Shown: in pieces, positions 29,779 to 39,383 of the stretch
How positions within the stretch are numbered: the first letter of the stretch is position 1
Layout: each line of letters starts with the position of its first letter
Assembly: GCF_009498735.1 (NCBI RefSeq)
Contig: NZ_ML762439.1
Location: 1 to 64,000, forward strand
From: Gracilibacillus oryzae
GTDB taxonomy: Bacteria > Bacillota > Bacilli > Bacillales > Amphibacillaceae
DNA: 64,000 bases
Direction: 5' to 3'
The notes under the pieces: model-generated
What the model saw: the letters and a program-made list of their open reading frames with translations, nothing else
What the model was told of the DNA's origin: nothing
Databases searched by the model: none
Made by a program: the position numbers and the translations under genes

Positions 29779-30525
29779 TTATTTGCTGTTATTCGCCAAG
29801 CGATGAATTAGTACAGCGTTATAGGCACCACCAAAGCCGTTGTCTATATTCACTACACTAATCCCAGAAGCACAAGAGTTTAACATTGTTAATAATGCTG
29901 ATAATCCTTGGAAATTCGCTCCATACCCTACACTTGTTGGTACAGCAATAATTGGATGTGATACAAGTCCCCCTACAACACTTGGCAGTGCGCCTTCCAT
30001 ACCTGCAATAACAACAGAAACAGTCGCTTGCCTGATCTCATCAATATGGGCGAAAAGACGATGGATGCCAGCTACTCCTACATCGTAAAACCTTCTGACC
30101 TCTATTCCATACGCTTCAGCAGTCAATGCGGCTTCTTCGGCAACAGCTAAATCCGATGTCCCTGCACAGACTATTGCAATATACCCTTTCGAACTAACTG
30201 TATCCTTTGTGTTCTTCATAAAAAGAAGATTAGCAATCTCATGATACTGGAATTCTGGCAATTCTCGACGAATCTCTTCCACTTTTTCTTTATTTACTCT
30301 GGTTACCAAAATGTCTTCTTTTTTTGTAATCATTGCCCGGGAAATATCGATAATTTGTGTCGAAGTTTTCCCTTCTCCAAAAATAACTTCAGGAGAGCCC
30401 TGACGTTTTTTTCGGTGGTGATCTACTTTGGCAAAACCAAGATTTTCAAATGTCGCCAGCTGTTCTTTGGCTTCTTCTGCACTCATTTCACCTAATGCTA
30501 CTTGTTTTAATATCTCTTCTAACAT
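29779..30525 (-). CDS. larB: Nickel-pincer cofactor biosynthesis protein LarB
   Basis: A 248-residue carboxylase/hydrolase that converts nicotinic acid adenine dinucleotide to the dicarboxylated pyridinium nucleotide, the first step to the nickel-pincer cofactor of LarA. The PurE-like C-terminal domain shows AIVCAGTSDLAVAEEAALTA, FYDVGVAGIHRLF, VIAGMEGALPSVVGGLV and VPTSVGYG. The chosen ATG at 30525 lies 16 bp after gntK; a longer frame to 30558 has no better ribosome site. Last gene of the lar/gluconate operon. Confidence 0.93.
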   Translation of the reverse strand: MLEEILKQVALGEMSAEEAKEQLATFENLGFAKVDHHRKKRQGSPEVIFGEGKTSTQIIDISRAMITKKEDILVTRVNKEKVEEIRRELPEFQYHEIANLLFMKNTKDTVSSKGYIAIVCAGTSDLAVAEEAALTAEAYGIEVRRFYDVGVAGIHRLFAHIDEIRQATVSVVIAGMEGALPSVVGGLVSHPIIAVPTSVGYGANFQGLSALLTMLNSCASGISVVNIDNGFGGAYNAVLIHRLANNSK

Positions 30526-30541
30526 TTCGTCACAACCTAAT

Positions 30542-32005
30542 TTAGAAATATTTTTCAATATCTTTTGCTATTTGTTGATAGCGAGCAAAAATCTTTTGAT
30601 ATTCTTCGTGATTCTCCATATTCGGCTGAATCACTTGGTCAATTGGTATATTTTCTTTAATTTGCTCAAAGGAAGCTACTTTGTTGATCGCAACAAGTGC
30701 TGTCCATCCTGCCCCCCATGCAGCGCCATGATGAGTATCTGCTAACTGAATTTCTTTTCCAAAAACATCCGCCATTATCTGGACCCATAATGGTGATTTC
30801 GATAACCCGCCATTAACAGAGATAGTTGTTGGCTTACCTGCAATTGCTTCTAAAGATTGTCCAATTTGATAGAGATTAAATACAATTCCTTCAAGAACAG
30901 CTCTTACAAGGTGTGGTCTGCGATGGGTAATATTTAAGCCATAAAAATTTCCACGTGCTTTTTGATTCCATACTGGTGCACGCTCACCATTTACATAAGG
31001 TACAAACAGCAGGCCAGCTGAACCTATTGATGCATGCTCTGCACCGCTGAGAAATTCTTCATGGGTACCTGTGAATTCCATGATATCTTTTAACCATTGT
31101 AAAGCAATCCCGCCATTGTTTGTCGGACCGCCAATGATTGATGTATTTTCTGTAAATGCGTAACTGAATGTTTCACCATTTTCATTAACATGCTGCCCTT
31201 CAATCAGTTGTCTAATGGCACCACTGGTCCCCACCGACACAGCAACTTCTCCTGGTTTGATTGCGCCATTCCCTAAATTGGCAAGTTGCCCGTCAGCAGC
31301 ACCAATTACTAAGTTTACGCCAGTCGGCCATTTCATTTCAGCAGCTAATTCTGGTTTCAGACCATCCATAATAAATGTTGGGGCAACGATTTCAGAAAGC
31401 TGCTCATTTTTCACTCCAGCTAAATGTAAAACTTCTTCATCCCAGTTTAATGACTTTATATTCATTAAACCTGTTGCTGAAGCCATTGAATAGTCAATTA
31501 CTCGTTTTCCATACCATTTGTAAATAAAGTACTCCTTCATAGACATGAAATAATCTGCCTTTTGATAGGCTTCATAATTCTTCTCCTTCATCCACATTAA
31601 CTTTAGTAATGGAGACATTGGGTGAATTGGTGTGCCAGTTTTGGAATAGATGCTTCTTTTTAAATCTTCATCCATATTTTCAACTAATTCACTGCTTCTA
31701 CCATCAGACCATATCAGCATATTGGATAATGCCTCACCGTTTCCGTCAACACAGATCAGGGAGTGCATGGCGCAAGATATACCGATTGACAGTACTTTTT
31801 CGTTCTTCGTTTTCTTAAATATATCTGTAAGTACTTCACGTGTATGTTTTTCAATTATATCAGGGTTTTGTTCCACATAAGAATCTTCAGGATAAATAGT
31901 TTCAATTAATTGTTCTGCTTCTTCCATCACATTACCCTTCAAGTCAAATGCAACTGCTTTAACACTTGTTGTGCCTAAGTCTAACCCTATTACTAATTCC
32001 CTCAT
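30542..32005 (-). CDS. gntK: Gluconokinase, FGGY family
   Basis: A 487-residue sugar kinase phosphorylating D-gluconate to 6-phosphogluconate. Domain I starts VIGLDLGTTSVKAVAFD. The gluconokinase-type segments GTPIHPMSPLLKLMWM and SCAMHSLICVDGNG favour gluconate over xylulose. The ATP site is GADGQLANLGNGAI and VSVGTSGAIR; the catalytic region continues in NGGLSKSPLWVQIMADVFG. The ATG at 32005 has GGAGGGAATT ahead. It is separated from larE by 90 bp containing a strong hairpin, and lies 16 bp before larB. The flanking genes and gndA support gluconate as substrate. Confidence 0.85.
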   Translation of the reverse strand: MRELVIGLDLGTTSVKAVAFDLKGNVMEEAEQLIETIYPEDSYVEQNPDIIEKHTREVLTDIFKKTKNEKVLSIGISCAMHSLICVDGNGEALSNMLIWSDGRSSELVENMDEDLKRSIYSKTGTPIHPMSPLLKLMWMKEKNYEAYQKADYFMSMKEYFIYKWYGKRVIDYSMASATGLMNIKSLNWDEEVLHLAGVKNEQLSEIVAPTFIMDGLKPELAAEMKWPTGVNLVIGAADGQLANLGNGAIKPGEVAVSVGTSGAIRQLIEGQHVNENGETFSYAFTENTSIIGGPTNNGGIALQWLKDIMEFTGTHEEFLSGAEHASIGSAGLLFVPYVNGERAPVWNQKARGNFYGLNITHRRPHLVRAVLEGIVFNLYQIGQSLEAIAGKPTTISVNGGLSKSPLWVQIMADVFGKEIQLADTHHGAAWGAGWTALVAINKVASFEQIKENIPIDQVIQPNMENHEEYQKIFARYQQIAKDIEKYF

Positions 32006-32059
32006 TCCAATTCCCTCCATTGTAAATACGCAAATGAATCTTTACAACTATATTAACAC

Positions 32060-32089
32060 GAAAAGCTTTGGAATGATCCAAAGCTTTTC
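32060..32089. terminator. Strong hairpin between larE and gntK, attenuator-like
   Basis: A 12-bp perfect stem GAAAAGCTTTGG/CCAAAGCTTTTC with a six-base loop lies inside the operon. Neither side has a clear T-tract, so it may be a partial terminator, an mRNA stabiliser or a processing site that sets the ratio of larA-larE to gntK-larB. Confidence 0.5.
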
Positions 32090-32095
32090 AACAGT

Positions 32096-32905
32096 TTAGG
32101 CTTTTTTTAGTGCTTGATTCATACTACCGCTTTTATATCCAACAAGATCCATCGTCACAAACTTATATCCATAACTTTGTAAAGTCTCTGTTACTCTTTG
32201 ATGATTAGCAAGTAACAATTCCATATCTTGTGGTTCAACTTCAATTCTGGCAATATCACCATGAGTTCTCACACGGACTTGACGTAACCCAATTTTTTTT
32301 AAGAATGCTTCCGAACGATCTACCTTGGTTAATTTTGCTTGTGTTATTTTTTCACCGTACGCAATTCTGGAGGATAAGCAAGCAAATGATGGTTTATCCC
32401 ATGTTGGTAAATCCATTTCCTTCGATAATTCCCTAATCTCATCTTTAAACAGATCCGCTTCCTGAAGCGGTCCGCGTACCCCTTGTTCTTTTGCTGCTTT
32501 CATCCCTGGTCTGAATTCATTCATATCATCAGCAATCACACCGTACACAATATTAGTAAATCCTTTTTCCTGCATTATCGGTACTAAATGATCGAATAAA
32601 CTGTTTTTGCAAAAATAGCAGCGATTTAAGTTGTTTTCTGTATAGCCAGGGATGGCTAATTCACTCGTTTCGATTACTTGGTGTCTGGCACCAATATGTT
32701 CTGCAAGCTTTCTGGCTTCTTCTAACTCACTTGTTGGATATGTCTCTGAATCAGCCGTTACAGCCAATACATTTTCAACACCTAGTGTGTCTACCGCAAC
32801 TTTTAATAAGAAAGTACTGTCAACACCACCTGAAAAGGCAACAACAACTTTCCTCATATCTTGGAGAATAGAAGTCAATGTTTCGTATTTTCTCTTACTA
32901 TCCAT
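32096..32905 (-). CDS. larE: LarE, ATP-dependent sulfur transferase for the nickel-pincer cofactor
   Basis: A 269-residue PP-loop protein that adenylates the pyridinium carboxylates and inserts sulfur to make the thioacids that bind nickel. The pyrophosphatase loop is AFSGGVDST. C176 in FACLSSR has the same number as the sacrificial cysteine of Lactobacillus plantarum LarE. Two more cysteines, C96 and C99 (NRCYFCKNS), could allow an iron-sulfur-cluster type of sulfur transfer. The ATG follows AAGGAGGAGATAGA. It is 36 bp downstream of the SDR gene. Confidence 0.92.
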   Translation of the reverse strand: MDSKRKYETLTSILQDMRKVVVAFSGGVDSTFLLKVAVDTLGVENVLAVTADSETYPTSELEEARKLAEHIGARHQVIETSELAIPGYTENNLNRCYFCKNSLFDHLVPIMQEKGFTNIVYGVIADDMNEFRPGMKAAKEQGVRGPLQEADLFKDEIRELSKEMDLPTWDKPSFACLSSRIAYGEKITQAKLTKVDRSEAFLKKIGLRQVRVRTHGDIARIEVEPQDMELLLANHQRVTETLQSYGYKFVTMDLVGYKSGSMNQALKKA

Positions 32906-32941
32906 TCTATCTCCTCCTTACTTTTCTTTCTGTAATTCCCA

Positions 32942-33712
32942 TTATATAGTCATCGAACCAAAACCGCCATCAACTCTGATAAATGTTCCAGTCACAAAAC
33001 CGCTCGCTTTATCTGACGCTAAATAAACAGCCGCACCTTGCAATTCTTCTGGTTCACCGAATCGATTCATTGGTGTATGGTTCATAATAGAATTAACACG
33101 TTCTTCGCTTAAGATCTTGCGGTTTTGCTCTGCCGGGAAGAAGCCGGGGATGATTGCATTAACGCGAATATTGTTTGGCGCAAATTCACGCGCTAAGTAT
33201 TGAGTCACACTATTCATAGCAGCCTTGGATGTTGAATATGTGAATACTTTTGATAAAGGCGTAGTGGATGAAACGGATGAAATATTAATAATACTTCCTC
33301 CACGATCCTGTTCCACCATTTTTTTGGCAAAAATTTGAGTAGCAAAAACGATTCCTTTTAAGTTGACATCCATTATTTTATCCCATTCTTCTGTTGCTAA
33401 ATCCAGGAATGGAGTTGTACTGTTCATACCAGGTGCATTCAACAGAATATCCCAGCCGCCTGACCATGCTTCAATTTCAGAAGCAACTTTCTCTACTGTA
33501 GATAAATCACTAACATCTGCCTGAAATGCTTTTGCTTGTCCTCCATCCTTATTAATCTCTTGTGCCACTTCATTTGCTGTGTCAAGATTACGACCTACTA
33601 TGGCCACTTTAGCACCATGCTCTGCTAAACCTTTTGCAATCGAAGCTCCTAACGTACTGTTTCCCCCTAGTGCTACTGCTACTTTCCCTGTTAAATCAAA
33701 TAATTTACTCAT
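32942..33712 (-). CDS. SDR oxidoreductase, probable D-mannonate oxidoreductase (fructuronate reductase)
   Basis: A 256-residue short-chain dehydrogenase. The NAD(P) motif, normally TGxxxGxG, reads LGGNSTLGASIA. The catalytic set is Ser in NISSVSS and Tyr/Lys in TYSTSKAAMN. The segment IIPGFFPAEQNRKIL is characteristic of Bacillus UxuB/YjmF-type mannonate oxidoreductases and separates it from general reductases. It would interconvert D-fructuronate and D-mannonate. It sits between larA (20 bp) and larE (36 bp). Gluconate 5-dehydrogenase is the main alternative. Confidence 0.78.
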   Translation of the reverse strand: MSKLFDLTGKVAVALGGNSTLGASIAKGLAEHGAKVAIVGRNLDTANEVAQEINKDGGQAKAFQADVSDLSTVEKVASEIEAWSGGWDILLNAPGMNSTTPFLDLATEEWDKIMDVNLKGIVFATQIFAKKMVEQDRGGSIINISSVSSTTPLSKVFTYSTSKAAMNSVTQYLAREFAPNNIRVNAIIPGFFPAEQNRKILSEERVNSIMNHTPMNRFGEPEELQGAAVYLASDKASGFVTGTFIRVDGGFGSMTI

Positions 33713-33731
33713 ATACTTTTCCCCTCTCTAA

Positions 33732-35000
33732 TTAGACTAAATCTCCATCTCCATTAAAGTTAAAATCATACAATTCAGAGATCTTTGTTAAGTTCTCATT
33801 ATTTTCAACATCTGCTAACATATTCTCTGACACTTCAATCTCGCCGATCTCCAAAGTGTTTTTAATTCTTACAATTCTTACTTTAGTAAAATCCAGAATA
33901 TTGCATGTTTTAATTGCTGCTTGAATAGCGGCTTTATCAGAAGGCATAGCTGTAGAAATATGTGTCGGTCCTACAACCGTTGATGTTAAACCATTCGCAT
34001 ATGTTGTGGTAGTATCCATCTTGTCAACTAATTTTTGTGTAGTAAAATCCGCAGTTCCTACACCATTCGCATTTCCTTCTGTTTCTTCCGTTAAATCTAA
34101 TACAATCATTTTGCTTACTTCAGGACCGCCATACGCATATGGCGTTGGATAACGCCCGGTAATATTAGGATCCATTCCGTCCCCGCTAATATTTTTTCCG
34201 ATCTCATCTATAACCAAAACATCAATTTGATCAAAGAACAGCTTAGGTAAAGTGGCTTTTGATAACTTTTGTAAATCCGGCTCTCTCTCTTCGATCTCTT
34301 CAGGTAATAACACTTCAACTTTTGCTATCTTATCAAATGCATTTTCTACAGTCGCAACTGCAAACATAATTGGCATTTTATCAATAATAATCTTCGCCAT
34401 TGCAGGAACATGTTCTGCCATATGTTTAAAGCCTAATTGGTGACAAGCTTCTGCTCCTTTTTGCTTTCCAAGACCAATGCTGATCATTTTCATAATGCCA
34501 CTCTCAACAGGTCCTCGGAATGCTGTATGTGGTTTTACTCGATTTATTACAACAATACCATCAGCTTCTGAAGCAATCTTATCAACATATACAGGTAAAC
34601 CGTTTTCAAGTTGGTCGATTTGAATTACTTCCATTGAGGAGCGAATCTCTGCACCAACTACTTCTTCTTTCACACCCAGATGTTCTAATACAGCTTTCTG
34701 CCCAGGTCCTGTAGCACCGCCGTGACTTCCCATACATGGAACAATAAATGGCTTCGCACCATGCTTTTTCAAAAAGTCAATGGTTACTTTCGTCAACTCG
34801 ACTAACCGGTCCAACCCTCTTGATCCAACTGCTACAGCAACTTCCATTCCCGGTTTAATCTGACTTTCTAAGTTTTTATGATCAAACTGCTTATTCAATT
34901 CTTTACTTAAATCATTAATTTGCTTATTATCAAAACTCTGCTTCACCTTGACCATTTTGGGAATAGGTATATCTTGAACTAGCTCATCCAGTATACTCAT
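33732..35000 (-). CDS. larA: LarA-family nickel-dependent hydroxyacid racemase/epimerase
   Basis: A 422-residue lactate-racemase-fold enzyme that would use the nickel-pincer nucleotide to epimerise the carbon alpha to a carboxylate. Candidate catalytic or cofactor residues are H93 (PCMGSHGGA), H158 (RVKPHTAF), K171 (SGIMKM, the lysine expected to bind the cofactor) and H187 (GAEACHQLG). LarA homologues include malate racemase and D-gluconate 2-epimerase. With gluconokinase, gndA and a mannonate oxidoreductase around it, a mannonate/gluconate epimerase fits better than lactate racemase. The ATG at 35000 has GGAGGAG ahead; a longer frame to 35069 would run into the AEC gene end. Confidence 0.88.
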   Translation of the reverse strand: MSILDELVQDIPIPKMVKVKQSFDNKQINDLSKELNKQFDHKNLESQIKPGMEVAVAVGSRGLDRLVELTKVTIDFLKKHGAKPFIVPCMGSHGGATGPGQKAVLEHLGVKEEVVGAEIRSSMEVIQIDQLENGLPVYVDKIASEADGIVVINRVKPHTAFRGPVESGIMKMISIGLGKQKGAEACHQLGFKHMAEHVPAMAKIIIDKMPIMFAVATVENAFDKIAKVEVLLPEEIEEREPDLQKLSKATLPKLFFDQIDVLVIDEIGKNISGDGMDPNITGRYPTPYAYGGPEVSKMIVLDLTEETEGNANGVGTADFTTQKLVDKMDTTTTYANGLTSTVVGPTHISTAMPSDKAAIQAAIKTCNILDFTKVRIVRIKNTLEIGEIEVSENMLADVENNENLTKISELYDFNFNGDGDLV

Positions 35001-35070
35001 TAGTTTCACTCCTCCACTAAATCTATAAAATAGTATAGCATTAATTTGTTTATCGCTCAAATTAATCATT

Positions 35071-35994
35071 TCAGAAAAAGATACGTGATAAATATATTAC
35101 TATTGTTACTGTTATCATACTAAAAACAGTGGAAAATAATACAGTTTGCGCTGCAAAATCTGGATGACTTTTATATTCCTCTGCAATAACTGCACTATTA
35201 ACTGATGTAGGCATTGCTGAAGCAATAAATAATGCTTGAGCCATTATACCGTCTAATTGGAATATCCAAATAATAATTAAAGCAACGGCAGGGCCGCCAA
35301 TTAACCGTATAAGGATACTGATATAAACAGAAATCAAGCCTTTTTTGAATTCCAGCTTTGCCACCTGTGCCCCTAAAGTCAATAGAGCCAGCGCTATCAT
35401 GGCATCAGCGATATAATTAGCAGATACCCATACAGGATCAGGAACTTTTATATTCCATGCATTTAATAAAACACCTGCTAACATAGCATATAATACTGGC
35501 ATTTTAAAGTAACCGAGTGCTGCCTGAAGTTTCCCCTCATTCCCTGCTCTTAATGTAAATATACCGTAAGAAAATAAAAAGATATTTTGCAAAGTTAACA
35601 TAATTACCTGAATGGACATTGCAAAAGGATCGCTCTTAAATACCAGGTCATTCACTGGCACCCCATAATTCCCCGAGTTAAAAAACATCACACTGTTTGC
35701 AAACGTATTCCGTTTACTGCCGGTAATCTGCATGATTTTCGCAATGATAAATGCTATTACATACAAGAGTATAACAAGTAAGATGAAGAAGCCAAGTACC
35801 TTCATAAATAATTCCAACCCAAATGTCGCTTCATATAACCTAACAAATATAAAGCCAGGTACAACAAAATATATATTTAATTTTGCTAAGGTGGATACAT
35901 CTAATCTAAATTTCTTGTATAAAACATATCCTATTGCCATTAGTAAAAAAACGGGGAGTATAATATCTTTGAAGATGATTAAGAACTCTGACAT
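35071..35994 (-). CDS. AEC-family permease, likely aldonate/organic acid transporter
   Basis: A 307-residue integral membrane protein of the auxin-efflux-carrier family (ten helices expected). Landmarks are LPVFLLMAIGYVLYKKF at the start, NIYFVVPGFIFVRL, MFFNSGNYGVPVNDLVF and ASAMPTSVNSAVIAEEY, the paired crossover motifs of this fold. Bacterial members move malate and other carboxylates. As first gene of the lar operon it probably carries a hexonate such as mannonate or gluconate. The ATG at 35994 follows GAAGGGAGGCTGTT. Confidence 0.88.
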   Translation of the reverse strand: MSEFLIIFKDIILPVFLLMAIGYVLYKKFRLDVSTLAKLNIYFVVPGFIFVRLYEATFGLELFMKVLGFFILLVILLYVIAFIIAKIMQITGSKRNTFANSVMFFNSGNYGVPVNDLVFKSDPFAMSIQVIMLTLQNIFLFSYGIFTLRAGNEGKLQAALGYFKMPVLYAMLAGVLLNAWNIKVPDPVWVSANYIADAMIALALLTLGAQVAKLEFKKGLISVYISILIRLIGGPAVALIIIWIFQLDGIMAQALFIASAMPTSVNSAVIAEEYKSHPDFAAQTVLFSTVFSMITVTIVIYLSRIFF

Positions 35995-36181
35995 AACAGC
36001 CTCCCTTCTCATAAAAAAAGAGAATAACAACGTTGTTATAAATATATTAGCATACTAATTATAAAAAGAAAATACTAATCTTCCTATAAGTTTAACTCGA
36101 CAATATTTGCATAGATCTGCTCATAGAATATAACCTTTTATGCAATATGCCGTATATACAATTACATGTTATGGCAATACT

Positions 36182-36246
36182 AACAAATAATTAACATCTT
36201 CTATTAACAAATTATTATGCTATGGTAATACAATCAGTTATTTGTT
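36182..36246. promoter_or_regulatory. Half-sites of the ROK operator in the divergent promoter region
   Basis: AACAAAT occurs at 36182-36188 and 36206-36212, and the inverse ATTTGTT at 36240-36246. These match one arm of the full palindrome at 36274-36292. They lie between the AEC/lar operon and the ROK gene, where they could extend repressor binding over the lar promoter. The rest of this intergenic stretch shows only AT-rich DNA. Confidence 0.45.
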
Positions 36247-36273
36247 ATACTGATTAAAAAGATTGCAGTTTTA

Positions 36274-36292
36274 ATTTGTTTTATAAACAAAT
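36274..36292. promoter_or_regulatory. ROK-repressor operator before its own gene
   Basis: ATTTGTTTTATAAACAAAT is a perfect palindrome with eight-base arms and a three-base centre, 25 bp upstream of the ROK start codon. The same arms TTTGTTT-N3-AAACAAA recur at 39315-39331 before gndA. Similar TTTGTTT-type operators are bound by XylR of the same protein family. Confidence 0.7.
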
Positions 36293-36317
36293 AAATAATG
36301 TTTTTTTGGGGGTTGTT

Positions 36318-37496
36318 ATGTTAACGGGTGATGGAGCGTATATAAAAAAAATAAATCGTCAATACATATTAAACGTAATTTTTGAAAAATCGAAAATTTC
36401 ACGTGCAAACTTAGCAAAAGTTACTGGTTTAAATAAAGCCACTATCTCTGTTCAAGTAAATGACCTTCTTCATGATGAGTTAATATATGAAACGAGAGAA
36501 GAGCACAACGCAGTCGGTAGAAGGCCTATTATGCTTTCCATCAATGAAAGCGCTGCATTTTTTCTTGGGATAGATTTGGACTATAACCAGATTTTATTTA
36601 ATATTACAAATCTTAAAGGAGATACTGTTAAATATGAGAAGGTTGATTTGCAGACAGATATATATGAGGACATTGTTAATATAGTTGCTAATAGGATTAA
36701 GCGGTATGAACAAGAATTCAGTCATGCTAAGTTTGGCTTGGCCCAAACCTGTATTGCCATCCATGGAACGGTATCCAATGATGAAATGATTCATTTTATA
36801 CCAAGTTATCAATGGAGGGATAAAAATCTTAAACATGATTTAAATACTAGAGGGATTAAAAATATCAGAATTGAAAACAATGCAAATTTAGCAGTATATG
36901 CTGAAAAGGTGTTTCACTATCATAATAGTGATAATATCATGCTGCTTAATCTTGCCTCAGGAATAGGGGCGGGAATTATCATAAATGGAGAATTGCACCG
37001 GGGCTTTCATGGGTATGCTGGAGAGATGGGCCATATGATTGTATATCCGAAAGGGAAACCATGTCGCTGCGGAAATGAAGGGTGTTGGGAAAGATACGCT
37101 TCGGAACCTGCTTTTTTCGAATGTGCTAATCGTATATTAGACAGGAGAGTAGATACCCATTCAGATGTAAAAAGGTTAATCGATAAGGAAAATCCTCAAA
37201 TTATGACTGCACTGCAGTCATGGATTACGGATATTTCAATAGGTATCAATAATATTATTAATCTTTATAATCCCGAAATGATTGTGTTGAATAGTCCAAT
37301 ATTAAAGTCTTATAATGGTTCTTTGGAGGAAATTAACAAACAACTAACTTCCTCTGTTTCCTATTTCCGGGAGATTGTAATTTCAGGGTTAGGAGCAAAA
37401 TCGGCAGTTGTCGGTGCTTGTGCTTTTGGTATTCAGAAATTCCTTGATTTACCGAGTTTATCATTATCGGACACTAATAACAGTATAAGTGCATAA
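36318..37496 (+). CDS. ROK-family transcriptional repressor (XylR/NagC type)
   Basis: A 392-residue regulator. The N-terminal winged helix reads SRANLAKVTGLNKATISVQV. The sugar-binding ROK kinase-like domain has FFLGIDLDYNQI, the NLASGIGAGIIINGE motif and the zinc-binding CRCGNEGCWERYAS. It is divergent from the AEC/lar operon and most probably represses it, itself and gndA until a sugar acid or its product binds. The ATG at 36318 has GGGGGTTGTT in front; an in-frame start at 36276 lies within the operator and is unlikely. Confidence 0.9.
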   Translation: MLTGDGAYIKKINRQYILNVIFEKSKISRANLAKVTGLNKATISVQVNDLLHDELIYETREEHNAVGRRPIMLSINESAAFFLGIDLDYNQILFNITNLKGDTVKYEKVDLQTDIYEDIVNIVANRIKRYEQEFSHAKFGLAQTCIAIHGTVSNDEMIHFIPSYQWRDKNLKHDLNTRGIKNIRIENNANLAVYAEKVFHYHNSDNIMLLNLASGIGAGIIINGELHRGFHGYAGEMGHMIVYPKGKPCRCGNEGCWERYASEPAFFECANRILDRRVDTHSDVKRLIDKENPQIMTALQSWITDISIGINNIINLYNPEMIVLNSPILKSYNGSLEEINKQLTSSVSYFREIVISGLGAKSAVVGACAFGIQKFLDLPSLSLSDTNNSISA

Positions 37497-37498
37497 TA

Positions 37499-37862
37499 AA
37501 AGAGGCCGGGACATAACTAATAATGTTAACCCAAAATACGAACGATACTATAATCAAGAGATGAACGCACATACTAAGCGCAGTAAAACACAGAGACTCC
37601 TGCGGGAATATCATCAGCTGAAAATCCCGCAGAAAAAGCGGTTTTTGCTTTTTTGAGGAAGTAGAAGCGATGCCCGCGGCAAAGAAAACACTAGGAAAGC
37701 GGTTTGTGCTTGAGTAGATGTTGCACTTGTGCCCTGTGGTGAAAGCGAAGTGTTTTGACGGAGCGACATATGAGCTAACTTTTTACATGAACAAAAACCC
37801 GAACTTTTAGTTTAAAGTTCGGGTTTTATCGCCATAAAATAGTTTTGTCGCAGTCTCTTTTT
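37499..37862. repeat. Dispersed hairpin repeat carrying a nested second element
   Basis: The ends are inverted: AGAGGCCGGGACATAACTA on the left, and a right end whose complement reads AAAGAGACTGCGACAAAACTA. Next to the right end is the hairpin CCCGAACTTT/AAAGTTCGGG. The left part ACGAACGATACTATAATC and right part GCGACATATGAGCTAACT are contiguous in the copy at 29569-29710, so the block at about 37583-37759 is an insertion. It fills the gap between the ROK gene and gndA, at the 3' ends of both. No gene was seen in it. Confidence 0.8.
37583..37759. repeat. Inserted ACTCCTGCGGGA-type block inside the hairpin repeat
   Basis: Bounded by GTAAAACAC and the complementary GTGTTTTGAC. Internal landmarks are GAGACTCCTGCGGGA and GATGCCCGCGGCAAAG, matching the block at 11945-12057 in order but with an expanded middle. 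It splits the outer repeat between GAGATGAACG and GCGACATATG. Confidence 0.7.
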
Positions 37863-37873
37863 ATTTCTGTTTA

Positions 37874-39283
37874 TTATTTCATCCACTCTGTGTGGAAGAC
37901 GCCTTCTTTGTCTTTTCTTTGATACGTATGCGCTCCGAAATAGTCACGTTGGGCCTGAATTAGATTTGCCGGAAGGTTTTCGGAACGGTAACTGTCATAA
38001 TAAGCAATTGCACTAGCAAATGTTGGTACAGCAATACCATTTGCAATTGCTACAGATACTACTTCACGAAGTGCTGACTGGTAACCTTCCACAATCTCTT
38101 TAAAGTATGGATCCAGCATTAAATTGGCAAGTTTAGGATCATGATCATAAGCTTCTTTGATTTTTTGCAGGAAGTGTGCTCTAATGATACATCCGCCACG
38201 CCAGATCATCGCAATTTCGCCATAGTTTAAATCCCAGCCATTTTCTTCAGAAGCTTGACGCATCTGGGCAAAACCTTGCGCATATGAAGTAATCTTACTC
38301 ATATATAATGCTTTTCGAACGGACTCAATAAGTGCTTTTTTGTCACCATTATACTGAATAGACGGTCCGCTTAATTGTTTACTTGCTGCAACTCGCTCTT
38401 CTTTTAATGCCGAAATGAAACGAGCAAATACTGATTCAGTAATTAATGGTAAGGGAACACCTAGATCAAGAGCATTCTTGCTTGTCCATTTACCAGTACC
38501 TTTTTGACCAGCAGTATCTAAGATCACATCAACTAATGGTTTGCCAGTCTCATCGTCTTTCTTCGTAAAAATGTCAGCAGTGATCTCAATTAGATAACTG
38601 TCTAATTCGCCTTTATTCCACTCTGTAAATACTTCGTGCAGTTCATCAGTAGTTAATCCTGCTACATTTTGCAAGATATAGTAAGCTTCAGCTATTAATT
38701 GCATATCGCCATACTCGATTCCATTATGTACCATTTTAACAAAGTGTCCTGCACCATTTGGTCCAATATATGTTACACATGGATCTCCATCCACTTTTGC
38801 AGAAATTGCTTCAAGGATTGGAGCAACTAAGTCATAGGCTTCTTTTTGACCTCCAGGCATGATCGAAGGTCCTTTCAACGCGCCTTCTTCTCCACCTGAT
38901 ACACCTGTTCCAATAAAGTGAATACCAGTATCATCCAATTCCTTATTCCGGCGAATGGTGTCAGTAAATAGCGTATTCCCTCCATCAATGATGATATCAC
39001 CTTTTTCAAGATATGGTTTTAATGATTCGATCGTTGCATCAGTTGCTGGTCCAGCTTTGACCATCAGCAATATTTTACGAGGAGTTTCTAATGATTGAAC
39101 AAACTCTTCAATTGTTTTCGCTCCTGTAAAATTCTTTCCACTTGCTTCATTCTGTAAAAACGCTTCCGTTTTGTCATAGGATCTGTTAAAAACAGCTACT
39201 GAATATCCTCTGCTTTCAATATTCATCGCTAAGTTCTTCCCCATTACGGCAAGGCCTATTACACCTACTTGTTGTTTTGCCAA
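37874..39283 (-). CDS. gndA: 6-phosphogluconate dehydrogenase (decarboxylating), GndA type
   Basis: About 469 residues. Oxidises and decarboxylates 6-phosphogluconate to ribulose-5-phosphate, producing NADPH. The Rossmann motif is [20 protein letters not shown]; substrate and catalytic segments are [30 protein letters not shown] and GQKGTGKW. The sequence follows Bacillus subtilis GndA (YqjI) more than GntZ, including the ending GVFHTEWMK. The likely start is TTG at 39283, nine bases after AAGGAGG; the ATG at 39292 abuts that site. A ROK-type operator precedes it, tying it to the lar/gluconate locus. Confidence 0.95.
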
Positions 39284-39314
39284 GTCCTTCATCCTCCTTG
39301 TATTTGCATTTGAG

Positions 39315-39331
39315 TTTGTTTGGTAAACAAA
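39315..39331. promoter_or_regulatory. ROK-type operator upstream of gndA
   Basis: TTTGTTTGGTAAACAAA is a palindrome with the same seven-base arms and three-base spacer as the operator before the ROK repressor gene at 36274-36292. It lies about 30 bp upstream of the gndA start. Confidence 0.7.
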
Positions 39332-39383
39332 TTATATTTTCTATACTAATCTTTTTCTGGATTATTTTCAAGTAGTATAATGA

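What the first reader, a model, noticed from the sequence alone, without database searches (positions are those of the whole stretch)
29779..39331. Candidate nickel-dependent bypass: fructuronate to mannonate to gluconate to pentose phosphate
The operon holds a LarA-family epimerase, an SDR with the PGFFPAEQNR segment of mannonate oxidoreductases, LarE, gluconokinase, LarB and an AEC permease; gndA is nearby under the same type of operator. Mannonate and gluconate are C2 epimers, exactly what a nickel-pincer epimerase could interconvert, and D-gluconate 2-epimerase is a known LarA-homologue activity. Together the genes would turn fructuronate or mannonate into 6-phosphogluconate without mannonate dehydratase and KDG. 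No dehydratase or KDG gene is in the locus.
Basis: partly seen in the sequence, partly recalled or inferred. Interest (0 to 1): 0.8.

Follow-up and report, generated by a model that had tools for sequence, protein, structure and literature searches.

The report
Nickel-dependent uronic acid shortcut in Bacillales
A Gracilibacillus bacterium and many of its relatives carry a gene set that probably uses a rare nickel cofactor to turn plant sugar acids into gluconate, feeding a different central pathway from the textbook one; the route idea is known, but this type of enzyme for it appears to be new and no enzyme has yet been tested.

Summary
Its epimerase belongs to NCBIfam 'group 22' of the LarA superfamily, not to GntE groups 19/20; I found no published activity for group 22. 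Comparative evidence supports the route: uronate isomerase (UxaC), fructuronate reductase (SDR), Ni-pincer mannonate/gluconate 2-epimerase, gluconokinase, 6-phosphogluconate dehydrogenase. All 37 sampled genomes with this LarA clade encode UxaC, against 91 of 360 others. Nineteen of the 37 lack a convincing mannonate dehydratase (UxuA); three of those also lack KDPG aldolase and PF04295 (altronate-type) dehydratases. In the window's own genome one 16-bp palindrome stands before both the larA operon and uxaE-uxaC. In five relatives of one genus larC2 adjoins uxaC, apart from the other lar genes. The SDR is sister to true UxuB. Caveats: nothing was assayed; kinase and SDR fall below their curated cut-offs; this genome also has uxuA, a kdgK-like kinase and KDPG aldolases, so here the route is parallel. 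The idea is known from Thermotoga (Rodionova 2012, as cited in PMC6978723; GntE2 activity in PMC7583248). Verdict: new variant of a known kind.

The parts
29779..30525 (-). larB, NPN cofactor biosynthesis (ORF called from TTG 30558; ATG 30525 likelier)
   Evidence: NF033503 311.6 bits, cut-off 175
30542..32020 (-). FGGY sugar kinase, probable gluconokinase
   Evidence: TIGR01314 449.2 bits, below cut-off 648.55; best TIGR01314 match of the whole genome, next 262 bits; nearest solved structure 3gbt 'Gluconate kinase' 337 bits, next 160
32096..32905 (-). larE, sulfur transferase of NPN synthesis
   Evidence: TIGR00268 369.9 bits, cut-off 150
32942..33712 (-). SDR oxidoreductase, probable fructuronate reductase (D-mannonate oxidoreductase), sister of UxuB
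   Evidence: PRK08277 275.4 bits, cut-off 281; quick tree, 99* support
33732..35000 (-). LarA homologue, NCBIfam NPN isomerase group 22, clade A: predicted D-mannonate/D-gluconate 2-epimerase
   Evidence: NF052515 556.2 bits, cut-off 400; catalytic and cofactor residues invariant; AF2 model pLDDT 92.3; all 19 PDB fold matches at E<=0.001 are LarA-family
35071..35994 (-). AEC-family permease, first gene of the operon (ATG 35994 with AAGGGAGG upstream)
   Evidence: Mem_trans 103.4 bits; sequence
36024..36039 (.). palindrome ATAACAACGTTGTTAT heading the operon, predicted site of the LacI-family hexuronate regulator
   Evidence: identical site between uxaE-uxaC and the lacI gene of the same genome; 15 of 15 Gracilibacillus/Saliterribacillus loci, window included
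36274..36292 (.). ROK-type operator ATTTGTTTTATAAACAAAT before the ROK gene
36318..37496 (+). ROK-family repressor (NagC/Mlc-like), divergent
   Evidence: Pfam ROK 176.3 bits
37874..39292 (-). gnd, decarboxylating 6-phosphogluconate dehydrogenase
   Evidence: PRK09287 793 bits, cut-off 413
39314..39332 (.). ROK-type operator before gnd (GTTTGTTTGGTAAACAAAT)

Best explanation
The operon encodes the lower part of a hexuronate route that ends in the pentose phosphate pathway. Uronates enter, are isomerised by UxaC (glucuronate to fructuronate; galacturonate to tagaturonate, then UxaE to fructuronate), the SDR reduces fructuronate to D-mannonate, the LarA homologue inverts C2 of D-mannonate with the nickel-pincer nucleotide to give D-gluconate, the FGGY kinase makes 6-phosphogluconate, and Gnd decarboxylates it. 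LarB, LarE and (elsewhere in the genome) LarC1 and LarC2 make the cofactor. A LacI-family regulator encoded beside uxaE-uxaC probably controls the operon through ATAACAACGTTGTTAT, and the ROK repressor probably ties itself and gnd to it. Shown by computation: gene identities by family, conserved catalytic residues, linkage, distribution, shared sites. Inferred: every substrate, transporter roles, regulator binding.
For: Clade A LarA (>=63% identical to the window's) is one clade with 99* support among the group-22 proteins sampled (33 of its members in a tree of 98). Of 86 distinct clade-A loci mapped (some cut by contig ends), SDR is in 82, GntK in 69, UxaC in 32, Gnd in 32, UxaE in 9; the SDR is within 200 nt on the same strand in 78, UxaC within 400 nt on the same strand in 21, and 14 loci hold UxaC+SDR+GntK+Gnd together. 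Locus L075 runs gnd-ROK-uxaC-larA-SDR-larE-gntK-larB-larC1-larC2. UxaC is in 37 of 37 clade-A genomes and 91 of 360 others, Fisher p 1e-20. Among UxaC genomes clade A is in 19 of 37 without UxuA and 18 of 91 with it, p 6e-4. G150, G269 and G342 have UxaC and clade A but no PF03786 match, no KDPG aldolase PF01081 and no PF04295 dehydratase. In the window's genome the operon's palindrome also stands between uxaE-uxaC and lacI and before a TRAP transporter gene. In 4 of 4 further Gracilibacillus genomes the site is between uxaE and lacI, and in 15 of 15 loci before the permease-larA operon. In five relatives of one genus code (L294, L295, L296, L299, L300) larC2 adjoins uxaC. Operon SDRs are sister to UxuB, 99*, with E. 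coli IdnO, KduD and FabG outside.
Against: No activity measured. GntE signature residues E,V after the second catalytic His are not present (T,A instead). The kinase and SDR are below their curated cut-offs. The window's genome holds uxuA-uxuB, a kdgK-like kinase and KDPG aldolases, so the route is not obligatory there. Eighteen UxaC genomes without UxuA also lack clade A; 17 of them have no Lar_N match at all and one, G216, has a group-22 LarA of clade C. So other solutions exist. 17 of 86 clade-A loci show no GntK, some because the contig ends, and three of them (L053, L064, L163) carry a KDPG aldolase in the stretch, so some species may use the epimerase otherwise. The palindrome is absent from the extra UxaC stretches of two clade-A genomes (L297, L298). 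Genomes are not phylogenetically independent, and the Fisher tests treat them so.
Confidence: 0.82

Rival explanations
1. Kinase first: the FGGY enzyme phosphorylates D-mannonate and the LarA homologue epimerises 6-phosphomannonate to 6-phosphogluconate, as was measured in cell extracts of Lactobacillus suebicus, whose genes were not identified.
For: Activities reported in PMC6978723 (passages); the kinase is divergent from canonical GntK (449 bits against 824-943 for the four matches over the cut-off in 9 genomes).
Against: The passages I read name only unphosphorylated 2-hydroxy acids as LarA-superfamily substrates; 17 of 86 clade-A loci hold LarA without a kinase in the stretch, some because the contig ends.
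Confidence: 0.1
2. The pair SDR+LarA acts on another hexonate (for example 5-ketogluconate/idonate or altronate), and the operon is a general aldonate scavenging unit.
For: NCBIfam second-best family of the SDR is gluconate 5-dehydrogenase (226.6 bits); UxaC also accepts galacturonate (general knowledge).
Against: The SDR falls with UxuB, not IdnO or KduD; UxaE in the stretch of 9 of 86 loci and in the uxaE-uxaC operon of the own genome routes galacturonate to fructuronate; the C2 epimer of altronate is allonate, not gluconate (chemistry).
Confidence: 0.06
3. A conventional Ashwell route carries all mannonate in this organism and the operon is a minor or vestigial by-way.
For: Own genome has uxuA-uxuB beside a GH67 alpha-glucuronidase on contig 10, a kdgK-like kinase and two KDPG aldolases.
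Against: All frames open and the set conserved in 16 named genera; the larA operon, not uxuA, shares the operator of uxaE-uxaC: no palindrome was found in L214, the 19.5-kb stretch with uxuA; 19 of 37 clade-A genomes have no convincing UxuA.
Confidence: 0.1

Closest known systems
Thermotoga maritima GntE2 (LarAH group 20) with GntK: mannonate to gluconate entry into the pentose phosphate pathway
   Same: Same proposed reaction sequence; C2 epimerisation of D-mannonate shown in vitro for GntE2 (PMC7583248, passages); the gene-order argument of Rodionova 2012 is known to me only through PMC6978723 (passages).
   Different: Different LarA subgroup: the window protein is NCBIfam group 22 and has T,A where GntE has E,V. 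Its only other NCBIfam matches at E<=0.001 are weak ones to two malate racemase families; whether NCBIfam holds a GntE model I did not check. The structure 4nar (T. maritima Q9WYS3; that it is GntE2 is recalled) is a distant fold match, 12% identity.
Corynebacterium glutamicum GntE1 (group 19) and Phytophthora nicotianae LarAH15
   Same: NPN-dependent D-gluconate 2-epimerase activity.
   Different: Other LarA groups; the authors note GntE1's very high Km for mannonate and suspect another native substrate.
Lactobacillus suebicus mannonate kinase / 6-phosphomannonate 2-epimerase route
   Same: Joins the uronate isomerase route to 6-phosphogluconate.
   Different: Phosphorylation before epimerisation; genes unidentified there.
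Ashwell pathway (UxaC-UxuB-UxuA-KdgK-KdgA)
   Same: Shares UxaC and a UxuB-type SDR.
   Different: No mannonate dehydratase, KDG kinase or aldolase step.

Membership tests
LarA superfamily (NPN-dependent 2-hydroxy acid isomerases) | Lar_N domain and LarA fold | tested here: met
   Pfam Lar_N 36.7 bits, cut-off 23.3; all 19 Foldseek matches at E<=0.001 are LarA-family structures, with modest TM-scores of 0.42-0.57
LarA superfamily (NPN-dependent 2-hydroxy acid isomerases) | two catalytic His (H108, H174), Lys184, His200 of LarA | tested here: met
   H93, H158, K171, H187 in 148 of 148 group-22 proteins counted (149 less L206); they stand opposite H108, H174, K184, H200 in a profile alignment with 15 Lar_N proteins (probability 65%, E 6e-5)
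LarA superfamily (NPN-dependent 2-hydroxy acid isomerases) | LarB, LarC, LarE in the genome | tested here: met
   larB, larE in operon, LarC1 at C5:129454, LarC2 in L215 14469-14933
NCBIfam NPN isomerase group 22 | NF052515 over curated cut-off | tested here: met
   556.2 against 400 bits
GntE (LarAH groups 19/20) | signature E,V at positions of LarA F175,F176 | tested here: not met
   T159 in 84 of 84 and A160 in 83 of 84 clade-A proteins; signature ('usually') from PMC11770544 section 6; F175/F176 fall in a gap of the profile alignment, so the correspondence is by position after the His
GntE (LarAH groups 19/20) | A,H at positions of LarA W358,T359 | tested here: inconclusive
   profile alignment ended before these positions
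GntE (LarAH groups 19/20) | interconverts D-mannonate and D-gluconate | not testable with these tools
   needs enzyme assay
SDR-type fructuronate reductase (UxuB, PRK08277) | over the curated cut-off | tested here: not met
   275.4 against 281 bits; own-genome UxuB scores 440.3
SDR-type fructuronate reductase (UxuB, PRK08277) | groups with UxuB proteins encoded beside uxuA, apart from gluconate 5-dehydrogenase and KduD | tested here: met
   99* in a quick tree of 54 proteins, as a sister clade; the tool warned of long branches that meet
FGGY gluconokinase (TIGR01314) | over the equivalog cut-off | tested here: not met
   449.2 against 648.55 bits, yet the best match in its genome

The most novel reading that the evidence does not exclude
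A second hexonate 2-epimerase type, from a LarA subgroup other than GntE (group 22), replaces mannonate dehydratase and the KDG branch in part of the Bacillales, so that whole species use hexuronates through a nickel enzyme and the pentose phosphate pathway alone; and group 22 as a whole is a family of sugar-acid C2 epimerases, with sister clades for tetronates (PdxA2/D-threonate-kinase context) and for a sugar acid handled by an Edd/IlvD-like dehydratase.
Probability: 0.6. Interest if true: 0.72.

Novelty: new variant of a known kind. Interest (0 to 1): 0.6.

Why it matters
It gives a specific, testable function to an unassigned nickel-pincer subgroup, suggests that D-mannonate/D-gluconate epimerisation arose in more than one LarA lineage, and predicts that some Bacillales depend on nickel for growth on glucuronate or galacturonate. 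It also corrects pathway prediction: genomes with UxaC and no UxuA are not necessarily broken for uronate use.

Tried and rejected
Rejected: calling the LarA homologue a GntE (signature and subgroup differ). Rejected: gluconate 5-dehydrogenase as the SDR's identity. Rejected: PDB matches of the group-22 profile to TAL-effector repeats, low-scoring and repeat-driven, taken as chance; phmmer of the single protein gave only a weak match to 2yjg (E 0.27) and one to a tail fiber (E 0.43).

Dropped rows. Four of 179 stretches (L190, L196, L197, L203) are not in the gene maps because my frame caller missed their LarA; the first three are 67-71% identical by tblastn and would belong to clade A. L206 lies in a 719-aa frame of which I kept the wrong end; it stood as a 10-unit branch in the tree and is counted among the 23 of clade B, but was left out of the residue counts. 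Before the Fisher tests 2 weak UxaC genomes and 11 weak UxuA genomes were dropped. Cluster names rest on one representative each.

Controls that speak less clearly. The tool's own control for the palindrome search (pattern read backwards, up to one mismatch) found 7 sites against 6 for the pattern, so the raw count at that tolerance is no evidence; I rest on the exact sites (5 seen, 0.019 expected from the base composition of the own-genome stretches I held), their placement and their conservation. The C17 copy lies inside a coding frame, so probably chance. Of 13 UxaC stretches fetched, the exact site was found in 8 (L288-L291, L294, L295, L299, L300), only 1-2 mismatch copies in L296, none in L292 and L293 (no clade A) nor in L297 and L298 (clade A). 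Enolase-superfamily (PF13378) proteins occur in all 8 genomes searched, so a ManD-type mannonate dehydratase is not excluded. The ROK-operator scan uses overlapping divergent promoters and one random control (20 of 252 segments at up to 3 mismatches, against ROK 31 of 39, UxaC 22 of 29, Gnd 14 of 29, LarA 30 of 83, AEC 1 of 21). The promoter scan found no excess over shuffles (35 against 36.2) and was not used.
Full report
What is there. The window lies in contig 16 of a 4.63-Mb genome; the best named relatives are Gracilibacillus (LarA 89% identical in G. ureilyticus), and genomes marked 'same genus' share their LarA with named Gracilibacillus loci. Six minus-strand genes follow each other from 35994 down to 29779: AEC permease, LarA homologue, SDR, LarE, FGGY kinase, LarB; a ROK regulator diverges and gnd lies beyond it. 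LarC1 and LarC2 are on contig 5. So the genome has the genes to make the NPN cofactor.

The epimerase. NCBIfam puts it in group 22 of the NPN isomerases (556 bits, cut-off 400). Groups 19 and 20 are those in which D-gluconate 2-epimerase was shown in 2020 (PMC7583248, passages and section 8); PMC11770544 (abstract, passages and section 6) adds LarAH15 and an activity of LarAH10. In the text I read no activity is given for group 22; supplements were not open to me, and that NCBIfam's numbering follows that paper's is my assumption. Equivalents of the catalytic and cofactor-binding residues (H93, H158, K171, H187) are invariant in 148 of 148 group-22 proteins counted. The predicted structure (pLDDT 92.3) has 19 PDB fold matches at E<=0.001, all LarA-family, at 12-16% identity and TM-scores of 0.42-0.57. 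The subfamily of PMC12393405 (passages), which lacks the second histidine, is therefore not this one. After the second catalytic histidine it has T,A where GntE usually has E,V. If it handles mannonate, it probably does so with a different pocket.

Context across genomes. Group 22 was found in 82 of 397 genomes sampled from the order, 78 of them over the cut-off. I read 99 places and 79 named loci; with the window that is 179 stretches, of which 175 gave a mapped LarA frame, 152 of them distinct. By identity to the window protein they fall into A (86 distinct loci, at least 63%), B (23) and C (43). Context differs sharply: A has SDR 82, GntK 69, LarE 59, LarB 55, UxaC 32, Gnd 32, UxaE 9; B has an Edd/IlvD-like dehydratase 21, a fumarylacetoacetate-hydrolase-like protein 21, TRAP transporter 20, semialdehyde dehydrogenase 18; C has a D-threonate-kinase-like protein 24 and PdxA2 23 (names from one representative each). 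A is a single clade, 99* (33 of its members in a quick tree of 98). Uronate isomerase is within 400 nt of LarA on the same strand in 21 of 86 loci, and 14 loci hold UxaC, SDR, GntK and Gnd together. Named clade-A loci represent 16 genera; each has GntK in at least one locus, 10 have UxaC or UxaE in the stretch.

Distribution. Taking the 397 genomes as one sample, clade A occurs in 37 genomes; all 37 have UxaC, against 91 of the other 360 (p 1e-20). UxuA is convincingly present in 18 of the 37. Among UxaC genomes, clade A is in 19 of 37 without UxuA and 18 of 91 with it (p 6e-4). Of 20 genomes searched further (those 19 and the own one), PF01081 KDPG aldolase is missing in G150, G269 and G342 and only weak in G246, and PF04295 dehydratases are missing in 10 of 20, these four and the own genome included. 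For G150, G269 and G342 no KDG branch was found, so if UxaC works there, mannonate needs another exit; L075 of G342 carries every gene of the proposed route, from UxaC to Gnd with the lar genes, in one stretch. Limits: enolase-type mannonate dehydratases were not ruled out, genomes are related, and 18 UxaC genomes lack both UxuA and clade A.

Regulation. A perfect 16-bp palindrome, ATAACAACGTTGTTAT, lies about 30 nt before the permease start. The own genome has five exact WTAACAACGTTGTTAW sites (0.019 expected from composition): between uxaE-uxaC and a lacI-family gene, before the larA operon, before a TRAP transporter gene (DctP by NCBIfam; the DctM behind it reads as two overlapping frames), before a lone Gfo/Idh/MocA gene, and one inside a coding frame. 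At up to one mismatch the reversed control pattern is as frequent (7 against 6). The site precedes the permease-larA operon in 15 of 15 Gracilibacillus/Saliterribacillus loci and stands between uxaE and lacI in four of four further Gracilibacillus genomes; of the other nine UxaC stretches fetched, four have an exact copy, one only imperfect copies and four none, two of these four from genomes without clade A. The own-genome stretch with uxuA (L214) has none. So in this organism the larA operon, rather than uxuA, appears to share a regulon with the uronate isomerase operon.

Cofactor genes join the two halves. In five relatives (L294, L295, L296, L299, L300; all of genus code g83, so perhaps one event) larC2 lies directly beside uxaC; the maps of the LarA loci of these genomes (L044, L048, L043, L046, L045) show larB, larE and larC1 but not larC2. 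Nickel insertion is thus split between the isomerase operon and the epimerase operon, as one would expect if both serve one route.

SDR and kinase. In a quick tree of 54 SDRs the operon SDRs are sister to the UxuB proteins encoded beside uxuA (99*), with E. coli gluconate 5-dehydrogenase, KduD and FabG outside. Long branches were present and the search was short. The kinase is the best gluconokinase match in its genome and its nearest solved relative is named gluconate kinase, but it is below the equivalog cut-off.

Mechanism, with marks. Shown by sequence: gene content, conserved catalytic residues, linkage, shared sites. Inferred: UxaC/UxaE deliver fructuronate; the SDR makes D-mannonate; LarA moves the C2 hydride to the NPN and returns it to the other face, giving D-gluconate through a 2-keto intermediate (the mechanism told for lactate racemase in PMC7583248); the kinase and Gnd yield ribulose 5-phosphate, CO2 and NADPH. 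Compared with the KDG branch this would return the reducing power spent by the SDR.

Against what is known. The route was proposed for Thermotoga by Rodionova et al. 2012 (not read; cited in PMC6978723, of which I read passages) and GntE2 activity was shown in 2020. Searches: lactate racemase + uronate isomerase, no paper; gluconate 2-epimerase, four; mannonate + gluconate + epimerase + 6-phosphogluconate, nine; mannonate + epimerase + gluconate kinase + Bacillus, two; nickel pincer nucleotide + epimerase since 2021, three. I opened passages of PMC7583248, PMC11770544, PMC6978723, PMC12393405, PMC11796402 and PMC4428132; the rest I saw as listings. None of what I saw reports this Bacillales system, but most subscription papers are not in that library. 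Hence: new variant of a known kind.

Noticed in passing
L089, L093, L098, L109 and other clade-C loci: A set of group-22 LarA proteins 37-45% identical to the window's sits with PdxA2, a D-threonate-kinase-like protein and often TRAP transporters: candidate tetronate C2 epimerase (for example D-erythronate to D-threonate).
   Followed up: partly
L066, L077, L082, L091 and other clade-B loci: Another set (51-58% identical) sits with an Edd/IlvD-like dehydratase of about 736 aa, a KdgR-like IclR regulator, a galactarate-dehydratase-like protein and alpha-ketoglutaric semialdehyde dehydrogenase: candidate epimerase of another sugar acid.
   Followed up: partly
L294, L295, L296, L299, L300: larC2 (nickel insertion) lies directly beside uxaC, away from the other lar genes.
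   Followed up: yes
L064:4268-5644 and 20 further entries, some the same locus twice: A 345-491 aa protein that looks hydrophobic and transporter-like by eye recurs in clade A and B loci (and once in C); the two members scanned had no Pfam match at 1e-8 and 1e-6. Possible new sugar-acid transporter.
   Followed up: partly
window 32096-32905 (LarE): LarE has CxxC plus the ACLSSR cysteine (both motifs in 89 of 101 LarE proteins of the loci); three cysteines suggest the [4Fe-4S] type told for T. maritima LarE in PMC11796402 (passages) rather than the sacrificial type in its NCBIfam name.
   Followed up: partly
L282 6209 (own genome C5:10208): The hexuronate palindrome also stands before a lone Gfo/Idh/MocA oxidoreductase gene.
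   Followed up: no
L284 4341-5613 (own genome contig 30): The dctM gene of the TRAP set behind the palindrome reads as two overlapping frames: split gene, frameshift or assembly error.
   Followed up: no
Gracilibacillus, Oceanobacillus and related loci, e.g. L094, L133, L150: Three Gfo/Idh/MocA genes (22-23 of 86 loci each) and a TIM-barrel isomerase gene (19 of 86) lie just upstream of many clade-A operons, perhaps feeding uronate from glycosides.
   Followed up: no
L202 (record titled Bacillus subtilis strain DE0224): Carries a clade-A locus 77% identical in LarA; the species label looks doubtful, as the same LarA (L096, G164) is in a genome with the genus code g66 of G239, whose locus equals that of Lederbergia galactosidilytica (L104/L145).
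   Followed up: no
control list: Haloferax volcanii has a group-22 match over the cut-off, so the group reaches archaea.
   Followed up: no
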